This document shows positions 2,715 through 17,987 of a DNA stretch of 20,521 nucleotides, in pieces. Within the stretch, counting starts at the first letter, position 1, and each line of letters starts with the position of its first letter. The DNA is taken from assembly GCA_018400515.1 (NCBI GenBank), contig JAGYMR010000024.1:1-20521 (forward strand), in the 5' to 3' direction. A program made the translations under genes and the position numbers. This DNA is from Tangfeifania sp. Lineage in GTDB: Bacteria > Bacteroidota > Bacteroidia > Bacteroidales > Prolixibacteraceae. The notes under the pieces were generated by a model. The model was not told where the DNA came from. It saw only the letters and a program-made list of their open reading frames with translations, and made no database searches.

Positions 2715-2749
2715 TTTGTTTTAGTTTTAAAAAAATATTTTAATATTTG
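2715..2749 (+). promoter_or_regulatory. Candidate promoter of the leu/ile operon
   Basis: TTTG at 2715-2718 and AATATTTG at 2742-2749 resemble the Bacteroidetes -33 (TTTG) and -7 (TAnnTTTG) elements. The -7 element has one mismatch and the spacer is 23 bases, slightly long. The region is very A/T-rich. Transcription would begin near 2755, about 18 bases before the leader peptide start. Confidence 0.5.
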
Positions 2750-2773: not shown

Positions 2774-2842
2774 GTGAATATACTTAACAACATAGCTATT
2801 CTCAGCCTGATTATTGGCATTCTTCTACTAAGAAAGAAGTGA
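2774..2842 (+). CDS. Ile/Leu leader peptide of the leu operon attenuator
   Basis: A 22-codon reading frame starting at GTG and ending in TGA. It contains six Ile codons (2780, 2792, 2798, 2810, 2813, 2819) and six Leu codons (2783, 2801, 2807, 2822, 2825, 2828), so 12 of 22 residues are Ile or Leu; it ends Leu-Leu-Leu-Arg-Lys-Lys. This is the composition expected of a leader peptide that senses charged Ile and Leu tRNAs. Its stop codon overlaps the first bases of the antiterminator segment at 2841-2848, and the frame lies between a candidate promoter and an intrinsic terminator in front of leuA. The peptide itself probably has no function beyond being translated. The GTG start is chosen because no ATG is available in this frame. 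Confidence 0.85.
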   Translation: MNILNNIAILSLIIGILLLRKK

Positions 2843-2916
2843 GAATGGTGTATTGTTAAGGATCAGAAAGGATAGTTTAAGCCATTCTCAAAAAAAGAGG
2901 ATGGCTTTTTTATTTT
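2796..2916 (+). promoter_or_regulatory. Four-segment transcription attenuator
   Basis: Four mutually pairing segments are visible. Segment 1 is CTATTCTC (2796-2803), inside the leader peptide. Segment 2 is GAGAATGG (2841-2848), overlapping the leader stop codon. Segment 3 is CCATTCTC (2882-2889). Segment 4 is GAGGATGG (2897-2904). Pairing 1:2 gives 8 bp with one G-U, 2:3 is a perfect 8 bp (antiterminator), and 3:4 forms the terminator stem. A ribosome stalled on Ile or Leu codons would leave segment 2 free to pair with 3, so transcription continues. A ribosome reaching the stop codon would cover segment 2, so the terminator forms. The architecture is read directly from sequence; the mechanism follows enterobacterial amino acid operon attenuators. 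Confidence 0.88.
2880..2916 (+). terminator. Intrinsic terminator of the attenuator
   Basis: AGCCATTCTC (2880-2889) pairs with GAGGATGGCT (2897-2906) in a 10-bp stem with one G-U pair and a loop of seven A. It is followed by a T tract (six T, A, four T). It sits about 120 bases before leuA and would stop transcription when Ile and Leu are plentiful. Confidence 0.88.
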
Positions 2917-2924
2917 AAAAAAAC

Positions 2925-2999
2925 ATGAAACGAGACCAGCAGAAACGGGTTCAGAATCTCCGAAAGGTTTATGAGCAGCCGCTGCTGGAAATAACATAA
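2925..2999 (+). CDS. Possible 24-residue peptide upstream of leuA
   Basis: An ATG-initiated frame of 24 codons between the attenuator terminator and leuA, rich in Arg, Lys and Gln and ending YEQPLLEIT before TAA. I do not recognise it as a named protein. It would be transcribed only when the attenuator reads through. There is no clear ribosome binding site; the upstream sequence is A/T-rich, as for real genes here. It may be chance. Confidence 0.25.
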   Translation: MKRDQQKRVQNLRKVYEQPLLEIT

Positions 3000-3029
3000 A
3001 AGAATTTAGTAAAATAAAAGGATAAAAAA

Positions 3030-4535
3030 ATGAGTGAAAAACTGTACATTTTTGACACCACCCTGCGGGACGGCGAACAGGTCCCGGGATGTCAGCTGAA
3101 CACCGTGGAAAAACTCGAAGTTGCCAAAGCTTTGCAGGAACTGGGCGTCGATATTATCGAAGCCGGTTTTCCTGTTTCGAGTCCCGGCGATTTTGAATCG
3201 GTGGTTGAAATCTCAAAAGTAGCCACATGGCCCACCATCTGCGCGCTGACCCGCGCCGTAAAAAAAGACATTGACGTGGCAGCCGAATCGCTGAAGTACG
3301 CCAAAAAGAAACGAATCCATACGGGCATCGGAACCTCCTATTACCACATCCATCATAAGCTGAACTCCACACCCGAAGAGATTCTGGAACGCGCGGTAGA
3401 GGCAGTGAAATATGCCAAGAGGTATGTGGAAGATGTGGAATTTTATGCCGAAGATGCCGGGCGAACCGAAAATGAGTTCCTGGCAAAAGTGGTAGAAGCA
3501 GTTGTAAAAGCCGGAGCCACCGTGGTCAATATACCGGACACCACCGGCTATACCCTTCCCAGCGAGTTTGGTGAAAAGATCCGTTTCCTGAAAGAAAATG
3601 TAAAAGGCATTGATAAGGCGATTATCTCCACCCATTGCCACAATGACCTGGGAATGGCTACCGCCAACACGGTTTCAGGAATTATGAACGGTGCCCGTCA
3701 GGCAGAGGTTACCATCAACGGCATTGGAGAGCGGGCAGGAAACACCTCGCTTGAAGAGGTGGTTATGATCATGAAAAGCCGGTACAAAGTGCTGGGCATC
3801 GAGACCGGCATCAATACAAAAAATATTTACCAGACCAGCCGGTTAGTTTCCACATTGATGAACATGCCTGTGCAGCCCAACAAAGCGGTGGTCGGACGGA
3901 ACGCTTTTGCCCACTCCTCAGGGATCCATCAGGACGGGGTGCTGAAAAACCGCGAAAATTACGAAATCATGGATCCCTCCGACGTGGGCATCAACGAATC
4001 GGCTATATTGCTGACGGCACGCAGTGGCCGTGCGGCATTAAAACACCGGCTTGAACTGATGGGGTATGAACTTCAAAAAGAGAAACTGGATGAAGTGTAT
4101 GAAAAGTTCCTGAACCTGGCCGACAGTAAAAAAGATCTCCGCGACGACGATATTGCCTTGCTTGTCGGCGACGCCACCCGCCAGGAACGCCGCATTAAAC
4201 TTGATTTTCTGCAGGTACTTACCGGGAAAAACCTTGAACCTGTTGCTATCGTGCGGCTCGACATCGCCGGCGAAAAATTCGATGCTACCTCTTCAGGAAA
4301 CGGACCGGTGGATGCATCCATAAAAGCAGTGAAACAGATCATTCACCGCCAGGTTACTATTGAGGAGTTCCTTGTCCAGGCCATCACCCGGGGAAGCGAC
4401 GATGTCGGAAAAGTCCATATGCAAATTGAATACAAAAATTCGATTTTTCACGGATTCGGAGCCCACACCGATATCGTTACAGCATCGGTCGAAGCATTCC
4501 TGGATGCCATCAATAAATTACCCGTTCAGGTTTAA
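3030..4535 (+). CDS. leuA: 2-isopropylmalate synthase
   Basis: Condenses acetyl-CoA with 2-oxoisovalerate to 2-isopropylmalate, the first committed step of leucine synthesis, in the cytoplasm. The 501-residue length is typical of bacterial LeuA. The TIM-barrel starts with [10 protein letters not shown] (Arg13, Asp14). Metal ligands are Asp14, His202 and His204 (STHCHNDLG), with Asn238 in [10 protein letters not shown]. The region YYHIHHKL (residues 104-111) and FYAEDAGR (138-145) match LeuA rather than citramalate synthase. Residues from about 365 to the end form the LeuA dimer/regulatory domain that usually binds leucine, including [14 protein letters not shown]. The start has AAAAGGATAAAAAA before the ATG. 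It is the first enzyme gene after the attenuator, and leuC follows 24 bases later. Confidence 0.97.
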
Positions 4536-4559: not shown

Positions 4560-5963
4560 ATGGAAGCAAAAACAATTTTTGATAAAATCTGGGATGCTCA
4601 CGTGGTAAAAAAGGTCAAAGGGGGCCCCAATGTTTTATACATCGACCGCCATTTCATTCATGAAGTGACCAGCCCGGTGGCCTTCCTGGGACTGAAAAAA
4701 CGGGGACTGAAAGTATTCCGCCCGGACCGGACCACCGCCACCCCCGACCACAACGTCCCCACCGAAAACCAGCACCTCTCCATCATTGACGAACTTTCAC
4801 GCCACCAGGTGGAGATGCTGAAAAAAAACTGTAAGGAACACGGGATCAAATACCATGACCTGCAGACCGAAGGGCATGGCATTGTACACATCATCGGTCC
4901 TGAAAAGGGACTGACCCAACCCGGTATGACCATTGTCTGCGGTGACAGTCATACCTCCACCCACGGGGCTTTTGGAGCAATTGCCTTTGGCATCGGAACC
5001 AGCGAGGTGGAAATGGTGCTGGCCAGCCAGAGCATCATGCAACCCAAACCCAAAAAAATGCGCATTACCATCAACGGATCCCTCGGGAAAGGGGTTACCG
5101 CCAAGGATGTGGCGCTGTATATCATCTCAAAGATCTCTACCAGCGGTGGAACGGGCCATTTTATCGAATACGCGGGAACGGCCATCAAAGGGCTAAGCAT
5201 GGAGGGACGGATGACCCTGTGCAACCTGAGCATTGAAAGCGGAGCCCGCGGGGGAATGATCGCTCCCGATGAAACAACCTTCAACTATCTGAAAGGCCGT
5301 GAGTTTGTCCCCAAAGGAGAAGCATGGGAACAAGCAGTTGAAAACTGGAAGCAGCTGAAAAGCGATGAAAATGCGGTATTCGATGCGGAACATACCTTCG
5401 ATGCGGCTGACATCGAACCCATGATTACTTACGGCACCAATCCGGGAATGGGCATCGGGATCACCCGGAAAATCCCCGTTCCGGACGGACTGGATAACAG
5501 TGAGAAAAAAACCCTTGAAAAAGCACTGAACTATATGGGATACCACCCCGGGGAACAAATGCTGGGCAAACCGGTGGATTATGTATTCCTGGGAAGCTGT
5601 ACCAACGGAAGAATTGAAGACTTCCGGGCATTTGCCGCTTTTGTAAAAGGAAGGAAAAAGGCCTCCAACGTGACGGCCTGGCTGGTCCCCGGATCCCAGC
5701 AGGTGGAAAAACAGATCCGCGCCGAAGGATTGCTCGAAATCCTTGAAGCAGCCGGTTTTGAATTGCGCCAGCCCGGATGCTCCGCCTGTCTGGCCATGAA
5801 CGAAGACAAGATCCCTGAAGGAAAATACGCGGTCTCAACAACCAACCGGAACTTTGAAGGCCGCCAGGGACCGGGTTCAAGAACCCTCCTGGCAAGCCCC
5901 ATTACAGCAGCAGCTGCTGCTATAACGGGAGTGGTGACCGATCCGAGGGAATTTCTGGAATAA
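4560..5963 (+). CDS. leuC: 3-isopropylmalate dehydratase large subunit
   Basis: With LeuD this aconitase-type enzyme isomerises 2-isopropylmalate to 3-isopropylmalate; in this operon it should also isomerise citramalate to 3-methylmalate. The 467 residues match the usual LeuC length. The three cysteines binding the 4Fe-4S cluster are Cys347 ([13 protein letters not shown]), Cys407 and Cys410 ([11 protein letters not shown]). Other aconitase-family signatures are TPDHNVPTE (61-69) and [15 protein letters not shown] (126-140). It starts with [16 protein letters not shown], a standard LeuC N-terminus. The gene lies 24 bases after leuA and 23 bases before leuD. The active site appears intact. Confidence 0.97.
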
Positions 5964-5986: not shown

Positions 5987-6577
5987 ATGGCATACGAAAA
6001 ATTTTTAATAATGACTTCACCGGCAGTTCCACTGCCCGTTGAAAATGTAGATACCGATCAGATCATTCCGGCCCGCTTTCTAAAAGCGGTTGAACGAAAA
6101 GGATTCGGAGAAAATCTGTTCCGCGACTGGCGGTACAATTCAGATGGCAGCCCCAAAAAGGATTTCCCGCTGAACGACCCCCGGTATAATGGAAAAATCC
6201 TTGTGGCAGGAAAAAATTTCGGAAGTGGCTCCAGCCGGGAACATGCCGCCTGGGCCATCTACGATTACGGGTTCCGCGTGGTGGTCTCCAGCTTCTTTGC
6301 CGATATTTTTAAAAACAACGCATTAAACAATGGCCTGCTGCCCGTTGTTGTAACCCCGGAATTCCTTCAAAAAATATTTGAAACCATTGAAAAAAATCCG
6401 GAAGCACCGTTTGATGTGGATCTGGAAACCCAGTCCTTCACCAACCGGACCACCGGTGAATCGGAAAATTTCGAGATCAGTGCCTACAAAAAACACTGCC
6501 TGAAAAACGGACTCGACGATATTGACTACCTGGTTGCCATGAAAGATGAAATCGCTTCTTTTGAAGCAGCCCGTTAA
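5987..6577 (+). CDS. leuD: 3-isopropylmalate dehydratase small subunit
   Basis: The swivel-domain partner of LeuC, completing the isopropylmalate isomerase. The 196-residue length is typical of the bacterial long LeuD type. [14 protein letters not shown] (near residue 20) and the substrate-binding loop [17 protein letters not shown] (about residues 76-92) are both present. The start ATG is preceded by an A-rich stretch (AAGAATAAAATACA). It lies between leuC and the citramalate synthase gene, which begins only 10 bases after the leuD stop, so the genes are probably cotranscribed. Confidence 0.97.
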
Positions 6578-6587
6578 TTGAAAAAAA

Positions 6588-8180
6588 ATGACAGGAAAAA
6601 CAGTTAAATTTGAGGGGAAACACCTCAGCATCATGGATACGACGCTGCGGGACGGAGAGCAGACCACCGGCGTTTCTTTCAGCGACAGTGAAAAACTGAG
6701 CATCGCCAAGGTTTTGCTGGAGGATGTGAAGGTTGACCGGATCGAAATCGCCTCGGCAAGGGTTTCGGAAGGCGAATTTCTGGGTGCCAAAAAAGTATTG
6801 AACTGGGCCGCGGAAAAGGGACACCTCGACAAAATCGAGATCCTCGGGTTTGTGGACGATGACATCTCCCTGAAATGGATCGCCGATGCCGGCGGGAAAA
6901 AGATCAACCTCCTTTGCAAAGGTTCACTGAACCATGTTCAGGGACAATTGCGGAAAACCCCGGAACAACACCTCGCCGACATAAAAAAAGTGATCGGCAA
7001 TGCTACAAAAAGAGGTATCAGTGTCAATGTTTACCTCGAAGACTGGTCCAACGGAATGCGCAACTCCAAAGAGTACGTGCACTACATGATCTCCAACCTG
7101 AAAGAAGAAAAGGTGGACCGGATCATGCTGCCCGATACCCTGGGAATACTTGATCCGGATGAAACTTATGACTACTGCCGGGAAATCATCAGTGCCTATC
7201 CCGGGGTTGATTTCGATTACCATGCACACAACGATTATGATCTGGCCATCGCCAATGTTTTTCATGCCCTAAAAGCCGGGATTAGTTGCGTGCATACAAC
7301 GGTAAACGGACTGGGTGAACGTGCAGGGAATGCGCCGCTCTCCAGTGTCATTGCAACCGTGAAGGATCACCTGAAGATGAAAACCCGCGTGAATGAAAGC
7401 CAGTTAAACAAAGTATCCAAACTGGTCGAGACATTCTCGGGAATACGGATTCCCACCAACAAACCCCTCATCGGTGAATTTGTTTTTACCCAGTGCAGCG
7501 GGGTTCATGCCGACGGTGACAGCAAAAACAACCTCTATTTTAATGATCTGCTCCCCGAACGATTCGGGCGAAGCCGGAAGTATGCCCTCGGCAAAACATC
7601 GGGAAAAGCCAACATTAAAAAGAACCTTGAAAACCTCGGCATTGAACTCGATGCCGACTCCCTGAAGCGAGTCACCCGGCGGATCATTGAACTGGGCGAT
7701 CAAAAAGAGACCGTCACTTCCGACGAACTTCCCTACATCGTTGCCGATGCCCTTCAAAACGACCTGATCGAACAAAAAATACGCATGGTGAACTACTCCG
7801 TAACCCATACCATGGGATTGCGGCCCGTGGCCAATGTGCGCATTGAGATCGGAAATAAAGAATACGAGGAGTTCAGCGACGGAGACGGTCAATACGACGC
7901 TTTTGTAAAAGCACTGCGGAAAATATACAAGCGCCTCGGAAAATCATTCCCGCAACTGGTCGATTACGTGGTAACCATCCCGCCGGGAGGAAAAACCGAC
8001 GCCCTGGTGGAAACGGTCATTACCTGGAAAAACGATCACGAATTTAAAACCAAAGGGCTTGATCCCGACCAGAATGCCGCAGCCATCAAAGCAACTATCC
8101 GTATGCTGAATATTACGGAAAATGAGATCAAACCGGGTTTGCTCAACAAAGCGATCAACGGATTATTTAACAACGATTGA
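6588..8180 (+). CDS. cimA: (R)-citramalate synthase, Leptospira type
   Basis: A second LeuA-family condensing enzyme (530 residues). It most likely joins pyruvate and acetyl-CoA to (R)-citramalate, the entry to threonine-independent isoleucine synthesis. From memory, the sequence follows the characterised Leptospira interrogans CimA closely: [51 protein letters not shown] and SGVHADGDSK. With a constant offset of five, residues reported there for catalysis or pyruvate binding are present: Arg21, Asp22, Leu86, Leu109, Tyr149, Glu151, Thr184, His212, His214 and Asp309. LeuA instead has YYHIHH and FYAEDAGR at these places. A C-terminal regulatory domain spans about residues 390-515. It sits between leuD and leuB, whose products act on citramalate too. 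Annotation pipelines may call it a second LeuA; homocitrate synthase is less likely. Confidence 0.87.
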   Translation: MTGKTVKFEGKHLSIMDTTLRDGEQTTGVSFSDSEKLSIAKVLLEDVKVDRIEIASARVSEGEFLGAKKVLNWAAEKGHLDKIEILGFVDDDISLKWIADAGGKKINLLCKGSLNHVQGQLRKTPEQHLADIKKVIGNATKRGISVNVYLEDWSNGMRNSKEYVHYMISNLKEEKVDRIMLPDTLGILDPDETYDYCREIISAYPGVDFDYHAHNDYDLAIANVFHALKAGISCVHTTVNGLGERAGNAPLSSVIATVKDHLKMKTRVNESQLNKVSKLVETFSGIRIPTNKPLIGEFVFTQCSGVHADGDSKNNLYFNDLLPERFGRSRKYALGKTSGKANIKKNLENLGIELDADSLKRVTRRIIELGDQKETVTSDELPYIVADALQNDLIEQKIRMVNYSVTHTMGLRPVANVRIEIGNKEYEEFSDGDGQYDAFVKALRKIYKRLGKSFPQLVDYVVTIPPGGKTDALVETVITWKNDHEFKTKGLDPDQNAAAIKATIRMLNITENEIKPGLLNKAINGLFNND

Positions 8181-8347: not shown

Positions 8348-9412
8348 ATGAAACTTAAAATTGCCATTCTTCCCGGCGACGGGATCGGACCGGAAATCAC
8401 AGAACAAGCGATGAAAACAGTACAAGCCATTGCTGAGAAATTCAATCATACCCTGGAATACCATTTTGGTTTGACAGGTGCTGTGGCCATTGACCAAACC
8501 GGCGATCCTTATCCGGATGCCACCCATGAACTGTGCATGAATTCAGATGCCGTGCTTTTTGGCGCCATTGGTGATCCACGCTTCGACAATAATCCCAAAG
8601 CCAAAGTCCGCCCCGAACAGGGATTGCTGGCCATGCGAAAAAAACTGGGGCTTTATGCCAACATCCGGCCGGTGGAAACCTTTGATTCCCTGTTGCATAA
8701 ATCACCCCTTCGCCGTGAATTGGTGGAAGATGCCAATTTTGTGTGCATCCGCGAGTTAACCGGCGGTATCTATTTTGGTGAAAAAGGGCGGAAGGACAAC
8801 GGGAATACCGCCTATGACACCAATACCTACACCCGGGCCGAGATCGAACGCATTCTGAAACTGGGATATGAATTTGCCGGCCGGCGCCGGAAAAAACTGA
8901 CCGTGGTAGATAAAGCCAATGTTCTTGAAAGCTCCCGCCTCTGGCGTGAAGTAGCCCAGGAAATGGCCGCCGGTTACCCGGACATCGAAACCGAGTACAT
9001 GTTTGTGGATAATGCGGCCATGCAAATCATCCAGTGGCCCAAAAATTTTGATGTGATGGTAACAGAGAATATGTTCGGGGATATTCTGACAGACGAGGCC
9101 AGTGTCATTACCGGTTCCCTGGGGTTGCTGCCGTCAGCATCCATCGGCATCCACACCTCGGTTTTTGAACCGATCCATGGATCCTACCCACAAGCTGCCG
9201 GCAAGGACATTGCGAATCCCATTGCCACCATCCTTTCGGCTGCCATGATGTTTGAAACCGCTTTCCAGCTGCCCCGTGAAGGCAAAGCCATCCGCGATGC
9301 CGTGGCCGCCTCGATGGTTGAAGGTTACGTAACGAAGGACATTGCCCAGGGAAAGGCATATAAAACCTCGGAAGTGGGCGACTGGATCGCCGCTTATATT
9401 GAAAAAATGTAG
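8348..9412 (+). CDS. leuB: 3-isopropylmalate dehydrogenase
   Basis: NAD-dependent oxidative decarboxylation of 3-isopropylmalate to 2-oxoisocaproate; here it should also convert 3-methylmalate to 2-oxobutyrate for isoleucine. The 354-residue length is normal. Family residues are visible: [10 protein letters not shown] (8-17), Arg97 and Arg107 ([13 protein letters not shown]), Arg135, Tyr142 (IYFGEKG), Lys189 ([15 protein letters not shown]), and the metal-binding aspartates Asp221, Asp245 and Asp249 within [19 protein letters not shown]. The NAD-binding end carries [19 protein letters not shown]. It is the last gene of the operon. The opposite-strand acyltransferase ends 10 bases after it, and no terminator is seen between the two convergent 3' ends. 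Confidence 0.96.
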
Positions 9413-17547: not shown

Positions 17548-17618
17548 GAATAATGATTGAATAATAAGACAAAAAATGATTTAACGCTGAAACGAAAGGG
17601 CCTCCACTCAATGGTGAT

Positions 17619-17693
17619 TCACTGAATGAAGGCTAGCGCATAAACATAAAACCCGACGGCAAAATGAATCCGGTGGCACAGGCAGAACCCCAT
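17619..17693 (-). CDS. Alternative leader peptide frame in the methionine operon leader
   Basis: A 24-codon ATG frame preceded by AAAGGAG only three bases from the ATG, starting MGFCLCHRIHF and ending at a TGA in the loop-side arm of the last hairpin. It has two Cys codons early but no Met codon after the start. It overlaps the frame at 17633-17728, and at most one is likely to matter. Confidence 0.2.
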   Translation of the reverse strand: MGFCLCHRIHFAVGFYVYALAFIQ

Positions 17694-17728
17694 GCGCTCC
17701 TTTGAGTATTTCTGAAAATGAAATCCAT
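17633..17728 (-). CDS. Possible leader peptide ending Met-Phe-Met-Arg
   Basis: A 31-codon ATG frame starting about 17 bases after the predicted transcription start, with an A-rich upstream stretch. It ends Gly-Phe-Met-Phe-Met-Arg before TAG, placing two Met codons (17647, 17641) at the 3' arm of the first stem and the stop codon at the base of the second hairpin. This would suit a methionine-sensing leader, but simple stalling logic does not clearly give derepression, so the call is tentative. Confidence 0.3.
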   Translation of the reverse strand: MDFIFRNTQRSAWGSACATGFILPSGFMFMR

Positions 17729-17751
17729 TTTATACCGGTTTTGTTTCTGCG

Positions 17752-17782
17752 CAAATATAGACGGATTTTTTTAATTTGCAAA
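17752..17782 (-). promoter_or_regulatory. Promoter of the aspartokinase-metY-metA operon
   Basis: On the minus strand TTTG (17782-17779), a 19-base spacer and TATATTTG (17759-17752) match the Bacteroidetes TTTG-N19-TAnnTTTG consensus in both boxes. Transcription would start near 17745. Confidence 0.75.
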
Positions 17783-17792
17783 CTTATCTGGA

Positions 17793-17987
17793 ATGAGTTC
17801 AGATAAAAATAACACACCGCATAAAAAAGCCCCTGCCAAAGGGAAACCACCCAGTGTGCGTCAAGGGGGTTGCTTTTTTGAATTTTTTCTGAAACAAAAA
17901 AATTGCGAACAATATTCTGACTTAAAGGTTAAATTATTGGTTGAGCGGGTGATTTTTCCCCGCAAATTCCGGATTTATTTAAACTGA
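17793..17987 (+). CDS. Doubtful small basic protein upstream of fabI
   Basis: A 64-codon ATG frame, Lys/Pro-rich at the N-terminus (HKKAPAKGKPP), that I do not recognise. It contains a long inverted repeat, AAAAAAGC with CCC (17823-17833) against GGG and GCTTTTTT (17867-17879), followed by more T. Such terminator-like structure inside the frame argues against it being a normal gene. Its stop codon abuts the fabI -7 element. Confidence 0.15.
   Translation: MSSDKNNTPHKKAPAKGKPPSVRQGGCFFEFFLKQKNCEQYSDLKVKLLVERVIFPRKFRIYLN

What the first reader, a model, noticed from the sequence alone, without database searches (positions are those of the whole stretch)
2774..2916. Complete translation-coupled attenuator with a dual Ile/Leu leader
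A 22-codon leader with six Ile and six Leu codons is followed by four ordered segments pairing 1:2, 2:3 (perfect 8 bp) and 3:4 (10-bp terminator with T tract). The leader stop codon sits on segment 2, as the classical model requires. The segments reuse one motif (ATTCTC/GAGAAT) almost unchanged, making a compact switch. Well-known examples are enterobacterial; a full one in a Bacteroidota genome is less often described.
Basis: partly seen in the sequence, partly recalled or inferred. Interest (0 to 1): 0.75.

Follow-up and report, generated by a model that had tools for sequence, protein, structure and literature searches.

The report
Ile/Leu ribosome-stalling attenuator before leuA
A short leader gene packed with isoleucine and leucine codons, followed by a switchable RNA hairpin, very probably turns on the leucine/isoleucine biosynthesis genes behind it when those amino acids run out; the trick is the textbook one from E. 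coli, found here intact in another phylum.

Summary
At 2774-2842 a GTG-started 22-codon leader has six Ile and six Leu codons; its TGA stop overlaps segment 2, which pairs perfectly (8 bp) with segment 3; segment 3 also forms an 11-bp terminator with segment 4 and a T tract. It is not chance: a model of the unit matches directly upstream of leuA in 38 of 80 relatives, 25 of them training sequences, and both alternative helices covary. Of 110 model matches in 295 genomes, 108 were read and 104 precede amino-acid genes (leuA 31, ilvD 60). Leader codons match the operon: leuA leaders carry Ile and Leu but little Val, ilvD leaders add about four Val. The operon here is leuA-leuC-leuD-cimA-like-leuB; two relatives whose operon is leuA-leuC-leuD-leuB, without cimA, have leaders with Leu but no Ile codon. 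Best explanation: classical ribosome-mediated attenuation responding to charged tRNA-Ile and tRNA-Leu. It is a new member of a known kind; leader-peptide attenuation has been noted in Bacteroidota before, briefly in the passages I could read. No expression data were available.

The parts
2745..2749 (+). ATTTG promoter box (Bacteroidota -7 type; consensus TAnnTTTG recalled); transcript start inferred a few bases downstream
   Evidence: ATTTG lies 21-31 bases before the leader start in 26 of 26 leuA leaders examined; no start-site data
2774..2842 (+). leader peptide gene, 22 codons, 6 Ile + 6 Leu, TGA stop at 2840-2842
   Evidence: an Ile/Leu leader was accepted in 33 of 80 leuA loci from the ORF scan and my selection
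2783..2804 (+). segment 1 (outer 2783-2790, inner about 2795-2804)
   Evidence: pairs with segment 2 in the minimum-energy fold; outer stem, counted over 2786-2793 with 2850-2857, 73% of cells paired with modest covariation; inner stem no covariation
2840..2860 (+). segment 2 (core GAGAATGG 2841-2848, starting inside the TGA stop)
   Evidence: 2:3 pairing in 99.6% of cells in 26 close relatives without two-sided changes; 91.4% of cells with 40 two-sided cells against 12.8 shuffled in 108 wider matches
2879..2889 (+). segment 3 (core CCATTCTC 2882-2889), shared by antiterminator and terminator
   Evidence: core invariant in 26 of 26 aligned sequences
2897..2907 (+). segment 4, closes the 11-bp terminator
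   Evidence: 12 of 12 consensus pairs have two-sided changes across 108 matches
2906..2916 (+). T tract; predicted 3' end of the attenuated transcript
   Evidence: sequence; terminator scan
3030..4535 (+). leuA, 2-isopropylmalate synthase
   Evidence: NCBIfam NF002086 and TIGR00973 above cut-off
4560..5963 (+). leuC
   Evidence: TIGR00170 above cut-off
5987..6577 (+). leuD
   Evidence: TIGR00171 above cut-off
6588..8180 (+). cimA-like gene, probable (R)-citramalate synthase (isoleucine entry step)
   Evidence: best NCBIfam match NF042433 CimA, 663 bits but below its curated cut-off of 950; lies 2.0-2.8 kb after leuA on the same strand in 37 of the 40 relatives given to the distance check
8348..9412 (+). 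leuB
   Evidence: TIGR00169 above cut-off

Best explanation
Classical ribosome-mediated transcription attenuation of the leuA-leuC-leuD-cimA-leuB operon. A ribosome follows RNA polymerase along the leader. If charged tRNA-Ile or tRNA-Leu is scarce it stalls on one of the twelve Ile/Leu codons (codons 3-19), which blocks 1:2 and leaves segment 2 free to pair with segment 3, so no terminator forms and the operon is transcribed. If both are plentiful the ribosome reaches the TGA that overlaps segment 2, covers it, 3:4 forms and transcription stops near 2911-2916. Without translation, 1:2 forms and the terminator again wins in this genome. Shown here: anatomy, conservation, covariation, codon-to-pathway match. 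Inferred: stalling, the ribosome edge, one transcript for the five genes, the response to starvation.
For: Anatomy. 3:4 covariation: 123 two-sided cells against 33.5 in shuffles, 12 of 12 pairs (alignment fitted to that helix). 2:3 covariation: 40 against 12.8, 0 of 500 shuffles (helix not in the fitted structure). Codon match: leuA leaders mean 4.7 Ile, 4.9 Leu, 0.4 Val (31) and ilvD leaders 3.7, 3.6, 4.0 (60); Mann-Whitney p = 3e-13 for Val, kinship not corrected. Natural experiment: G003 and G032 have leuA-leuC-leuD-leuB without cimA, no CimA match in the genome at 1e-50, and leaders with 11 and 6 Leu but 0 Ile, while G351 has cimA in place and four Ile; 0 of 31 cimA-positive leuA leaders of the order sample lack Ile. 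Ribosome-position model, window: P(2:3) 0.97-1.00 with the A site on codons 3-19, 0.55 at Arg20, 0.15 at Lys21, 0.00 from Lys22 to the stop, 0.00 without a ribosome.
Against: No expression or 3'-end data for this organism. In the model 12 of 25 units would form 2:3 without any ribosome, so the 1:2 default is not general, and in 7 of 25 the last Ile/Leu codon lies too close to the stop to free segment 2 (the ribosome edge is an assumption from memory). The inner 1:2 stem does not covary; the outer stem's two-sided cells (15) are exceeded by a one-column slide (18). In 2:3 the number of pairs with two-sided change (6) is reached by 9 of 500 shuffles and exceeded by one slide (7), and 26 of 102 cells fail at one pair. 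In L002 the leader stop is out of register. G103 has a single Ile codon although its genome has cimA. Three genomes with Ile-bearing leaders (L007, L018, L023) gave no CimA match; their contigs end 1.2-2.0 kb after leuA, before the usual cimA place, but absence cannot be excluded. Many leuA loci have no detectable unit.
Confidence: 0.93

Rival explanations
1. A small hydrophobic membrane protein gene that happens to lie before an ordinary terminator; the Ile/Leu richness is that of a transmembrane helix, with no attenuation.
For: The peptide is hydrophobic with basic last residues, and its I/L/G pattern is fairly constant in close relatives.
Against: A membrane helix would accept Val, yet leuA leaders have little while units before ilvD have about four; leaders before hisG are His-rich and one before an asnB-like gene is Asn-rich. 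It does not explain 2:3 covariation, the stop codon on segment 2 or the absence of Ile codons without cimA.
Confidence: 0.02
2. The same RNA switch, but sensing another signal (a protein, a metabolite or general ribosome slowing), the Ile/Leu codons being secondary.
For: The RNA helices alone would permit other sensors; gltB leaders found with the same model show no clear codon signature.
Against: Codon-to-pathway match over leu, ilv and his operons and the cimA comparison. No Rfam family reaches its threshold.
Confidence: 0.04
3. Leucine is the only real signal; the Ile codons are neutral.
For: leuA is the first gene and Leu codons are as many as Ile codons; G103 keeps cimA with a single Ile codon.
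Against: The operon holds a cimA-like gene; Ile codons are present in 31 of 31 leuA leaders of cimA-positive genomes in the order sample and absent in the two genomes whose operon was seen to lack cimA and where a leader was found.
Confidence: 0.12

Closest known systems
Enterobacterial leu and ilvGMEDA attenuators (leader peptides leuL, ilvL; recalled)
   Same: Codon-rich leader, ordered segments, stop codon on segment 2, terminator with T tract, branched-chain amino acids.
   Different: No Rfam match at threshold; the best weak one is Phe_leader, 26.5 bits against 55. Ile plus Leu without Val, fitting a leu-cimA operon; Bacteroidota-type promoter box.
Leader-peptide attenuation in Flavobacterium psychrophilum (PMC9723704; passages seen)
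   Same: Same phylum; reports strong clues for leader-peptide attenuation upstream of amino-acid operons.
   Different: The passages seen name no leu or Ile leader; its supplementary tables could not be read here.
Bacteroid-trp RNA (RF01692; PMC2864571, table row seen)
   Same: A putative cis-regulatory RNA of Bacteroidetes, by its name linked to trp.
   Different: No match to the window. That it holds a Trp leader is recalled only.
Staphylococcus aureus leucine-rich attenuator peptide (PMC5794164; search listing only)
   Same: Leucine-rich leader controlling branched-chain amino-acid synthesis outside enterobacteria, by its title.
   Different: Different phylum; acts beside CodY according to its title.

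Membership tests
Classical (ribosome-mediated) transcription attenuator | Short leader ORF rich in codons for the operon's end product | tested here: met
   6 Ile + 6 Leu of 22 codons; operon leuA-C-D-cimA-like-B; class comparison
Classical (ribosome-mediated) transcription attenuator | Intrinsic terminator before the first structural gene | tested here: met
   11-bp hairpin and T tract, covarying
Classical (ribosome-mediated) transcription attenuator | Antiterminator that excludes the terminator (2:3 against 3:4) | tested here: met
   shared segment 3; 2:3 covariation, 99.6% of cells paired in close relatives
Classical (ribosome-mediated) transcription attenuator | Protector hairpin 1:2 | tested here: inconclusive
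   present in the window; outer stem weakly covarying, inner stem not; loses to 2:3 in 12 of 25 units in the model without a ribosome
Classical (ribosome-mediated) transcription attenuator | Leader stop placed so that a terminating ribosome masks segment 2 | tested here: met
   stop overlaps segment 2 in 25 of 26; P(2:3) 0.00 with a ribosome at the stop in 25 of 25 (assumed ribosome edge)
Classical (ribosome-mediated) transcription attenuator | Readthrough rises when the cognate amino acid is limiting | not testable with these tools
   needs RNA or reporter data
Known Rfam leader families (Leu_leader, Phe_leader and others) | Covariance-model match at the curated threshold | tested here: not met
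   no match at gathering; best weak match Phe_leader 26.5 of 55 bits

The most novel reading that the evidence does not exclude
In Bacteroidota, leader-peptide attenuation is a main way of controlling amino-acid operons, and the set of sensed amino acids follows the operon's gene content: Ile codons in the leu leader are kept while cimA is in the operon and lost where it is gone, and some ilv operons (ilvD, ilvB, ilvE) carry two complete attenuators in series.
Probability: 0.6. Interest if true: 0.6.

Novelty: new member of a known kind. Interest (0 to 1): 0.42.

Why it matters
It shows the textbook switch complete and recurrent in a phylum where the papers I could search say little about it: a 2010 survey stated that, to its authors' knowledge, no leader-peptide system (ermC apart) had been shown outside Proteobacteria and Actinobacteria before the Firmicutes case it reported (PMC2965389, passage). 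The link between cimA and Ile codons gives a clean evolutionary test of what a leader senses, and the model points to controlled operons in uncultured genomes from sequence alone.

Tried and rejected
Shared cassette idea: because one model found units before leu, ilv, his, glt and asn genes, I asked whether one RNA core is reused across operons. In 30 hisG loci (the 30 returned, from 37 of 60 genomes with a match) leaders are mostly His-rich, but 0 of 30 have the CC.TT(C/T)TC core after the chosen ORF, so I reject it; the two hisG hits of the model are exceptions.

Conserved peptide or membrane protein: rejected by the Val contrast. Second small ORF 2926-3000: no counterpart noticed by eye in the 33 relatives' leader-to-leuA regions printed, so not treated as a gene; no search was run for it. 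Rfam assignment: none. Covariation of 2:3 among close relatives alone is uninformative because the core of segment 3 does not vary.

Larger cimA test: 103 leuA loci from 247 genomes of one family. A strict leader-plus-terminator scan gave 15 leaders in 54 cimA-positive genomes (I drop G581 as doubtful, leaving 14) and 1 in 49 cimA-negative ones (G032); G003 passes only the looser scans. Fisher for Ile-free leaders: 2 of 2 against 0 of 14, p = 0.008; with the 31 order leaders, 0.0009. This leaves out three genomes with Ile leaders and no CimA match whose contigs end before the cimA place (L007, L018, L023); few independent events, kinship not corrected. Most leuA loci of that family have no leader that I could find. 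The cimA hit of G546 overlaps its leuA, so I count it as negative.

Rows dropped or not given: 2 of 110 model hits could not be read; L002 was left out of the ribosome model; 100 loci chosen by me went into alignment A2, whose 108 rows include a few weak, doubtful or partial matches; 40 of 45 cimA-positive genomes went into the distance check.

Full report
What is there. The window comes from a Bacteroidota genome close to Mariniphaga, Draconibacterium and Maribellus (Prolixibacteraceae, inferred from record titles): its leuA is up to 89% identical to theirs. No whole genome is held for it. Before leuA lies a 22-codon leader, GTG 2774 to TGA 2840-2842, with six Ile and six Leu codons and no Val after the start. 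Segment 2 (core 2841-2848) starts inside the stop codon and is perfectly complementary to segment 3 (2882-2889); segment 3 also pairs with segment 4 in an 11-bp hairpin followed by TTTTATTTT. The minimum-energy fold shows 1:2 and 3:4 together, z = -5.4.

Conservation. Of the 80 leuA loci kept by the search (best 80 of at least 596), 33 have an Ile/Leu-rich short ORF upstream that I accepted after the scan. A covariance model from 26 units, window included, matches the + strand just before leuA in 38 of 80 loci at E <= 0.01, of which 25 were training sequences; I did not read the leader in every one of the other 13. In the 26-row alignment the core of segment 3 does not vary, while segments 2 and 4 vary by changes that keep pairing, with single exceptions. 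An ATTTG box stands 21-31 bases before the leader in 26 of 26, and the stop codon overlaps segment 2 in 25 of 26.

Covariation. Across 108 matches (107 distinct) from leu, ilv and other operons, all 12 pairs of the terminator change on both sides in some sequence, 123 two-sided cells against 33.5 in shuffles; that alignment was fitted to this helix. The antiterminator, not in the fitted structure, has 91.4% of cells paired and 40 two-sided cells against 12.8, reached by 0 of 500 shuffles; slid versions give at most 13. Its count of pairs with two-sided change (6) is less striking: 9 of 500 shuffles reach it and one slide gives 7, and one pair fails in 26 of 102 cells. The outer part of 1:2 has modest support (73% paired, score 0.228 against 0.162, but a one-column slide has more two-sided cells, 18 against 15), the inner part none.

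What it senses. The model was run on 295 genomes of the order: 75 have a match, 110 places. Of the 108 that I could read, 31 precede leuA, 60 ilvD, 6 gltB, 2 ilvB, 2 hisG, 2 ilvE, 1 an asnB-like gene, and 4 none of these. These gene names come from recalled sequence signatures, not from a profile search. Leaders before leuA average 4.7 Ile, 4.9 Leu and 0.4 Val; leaders before ilvD average 3.7, 3.6 and 4.0. The two hisG leaders are His-rich and the asnB-like leader has nine Asn. In 30 hisG loci sampled by gene, 24 have a short ORF with at least four His, against 2% in shuffles. The codons therefore follow the operon, gltB excepted, where no signature is clear.

Why Ile and Leu. The gene after leuD, 6588-8180, matches best the CimA model NF042433 (663 bits, under its cut-off of 950). 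Citramalate synthase starts an isoleucine route that then uses LeuC, LeuD and LeuB (recalled pathway knowledge), so an operon with leuA, leuC, leuD, cimA and leuB makes precursors of both amino acids. Of 49 relatives' genomes, 33 chosen with leader and 16 without, 45 have this gene. I gave 40 of these to a distance check: in 37 it lies 2.0-2.8 kb after leuA on the same strand, taking matching coordinates to mean one contig; L004, L026 and L033 do not fit and appear to be on other contigs. Of the four genomes without a match, three (L007, L018, L023) have Ile-bearing leaders, but their contigs end 1.2-2.0 kb after leuA, before the cimA place. The fourth, G003, has leuA-leuC-leuD-leuB with no cimA between and a leader with 11 Leu and 0 Ile. 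A family search found a second, G032: leuA-leuC-leuD-leuB with leuD and leuB almost touching, no CimA match in the genome, leader MNTTLLSLSLTSGLTLSK; beside it a relative, G351, with leuA-leuC-leuD-cimA-leuB and leader MNSIILSLSIIGLTLSK. Of 31 leuA leaders in the order sample, all from cimA-positive genomes, none lacks Ile; the lowest, G103, has one. The wider family test is given under Tried and rejected: it agrees, on few cases.

How it works. With the ribosome edge set 12 bases beyond the first A-site base (an assumption), the chance of 2:3 before segment 4 is made is 0.97-1.00 for stalls on codons 3-19 of the window, falls to 0.55 and 0.15 on the next two codons and is 0.00 at the stop and without a ribosome. 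In the window the run of regulatory codons thus ends where control is lost. In 18 of 25 units the last Ile/Leu codon still gives at least 0.5; in 7 it does not, because a final Leu, in one case Ile, lies one codon before the stop. In 12 of 25 units 2:3 would win without any ribosome.

What is known. A Flavobacterium psychrophilum study reports strong clues for leader-peptide attenuation upstream of amino-acid operons (passages); the B. thetaiotaomicron map mentions short ORFs reminiscent of leader peptides (passages); Bacteroid-trp is listed as a putative cis-regulatory Bacteroidetes motif (table row). Searches that joined Bacteroidetes or Bacteroidota with attenuation and leader-peptide terms returned 0 to 2 papers when all terms were required; looser ones listed mainly other phyla or other subjects. 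The library lacks most subscription journals, so I do not claim that leu leaders are unreported. Verdict: a well-supported, ordinary mechanism in a less usual place.

Noticed in passing
L108 1480-1920, L120 1480-1930, L139 10-360, L163 80-450, L157 1200-1600 (minus), L164 560-869 (minus), L176 1-280: Two successive attenuator-like units before ilvD, ilvB or ilvE: two terminator hairpins in six of the seven stretches by the printed scan (L176's second is plain in the sequence), two branched-chain-rich leaders readable in at least L108, L120, L157 and L163. Tandem attenuators are described for Salmonella mgtCBR as a singular example, with different signals (passages).
   Followed up: partly
L202-L231 (30 hisG loci): 24 of 30 hisG-upstream regions hold a short ORF with at least four His codons, against 2% of shuffles, most followed by a hairpin with a T run of a different core.
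   Followed up: partly
L125, L126, L147, L149, L158, L180, L092: Units before gltB found by the leuA model; the leaders read show no clear Glu/Gln codon signature, none was found in L149, and the one in L092 is Asn-rich. The signal is unexplained.
   Followed up: no
L184: Leader MRKNSLNNNSSNNALNNNYS before an asnB-like gene, suggesting Asn attenuation.
   Followed up: no
window 17548-17900, minus strand: Region upstream of the aspartate kinase, O-acetylhomoserine sulfhydrylase and metA genes folds somewhat better than shuffles (z = -2.0, 4 of 100 as good) with a strong hairpin at about 17590-17640; no Rfam match.
   Followed up: no
family of G032 (103 leuA loci): Leaders were found in 15 of 54 cimA-positive but only 1-2 of 49 cimA-negative genomes, as if the attenuator tends to be lost with cimA; detection limits not excluded.
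   Followed up: partly
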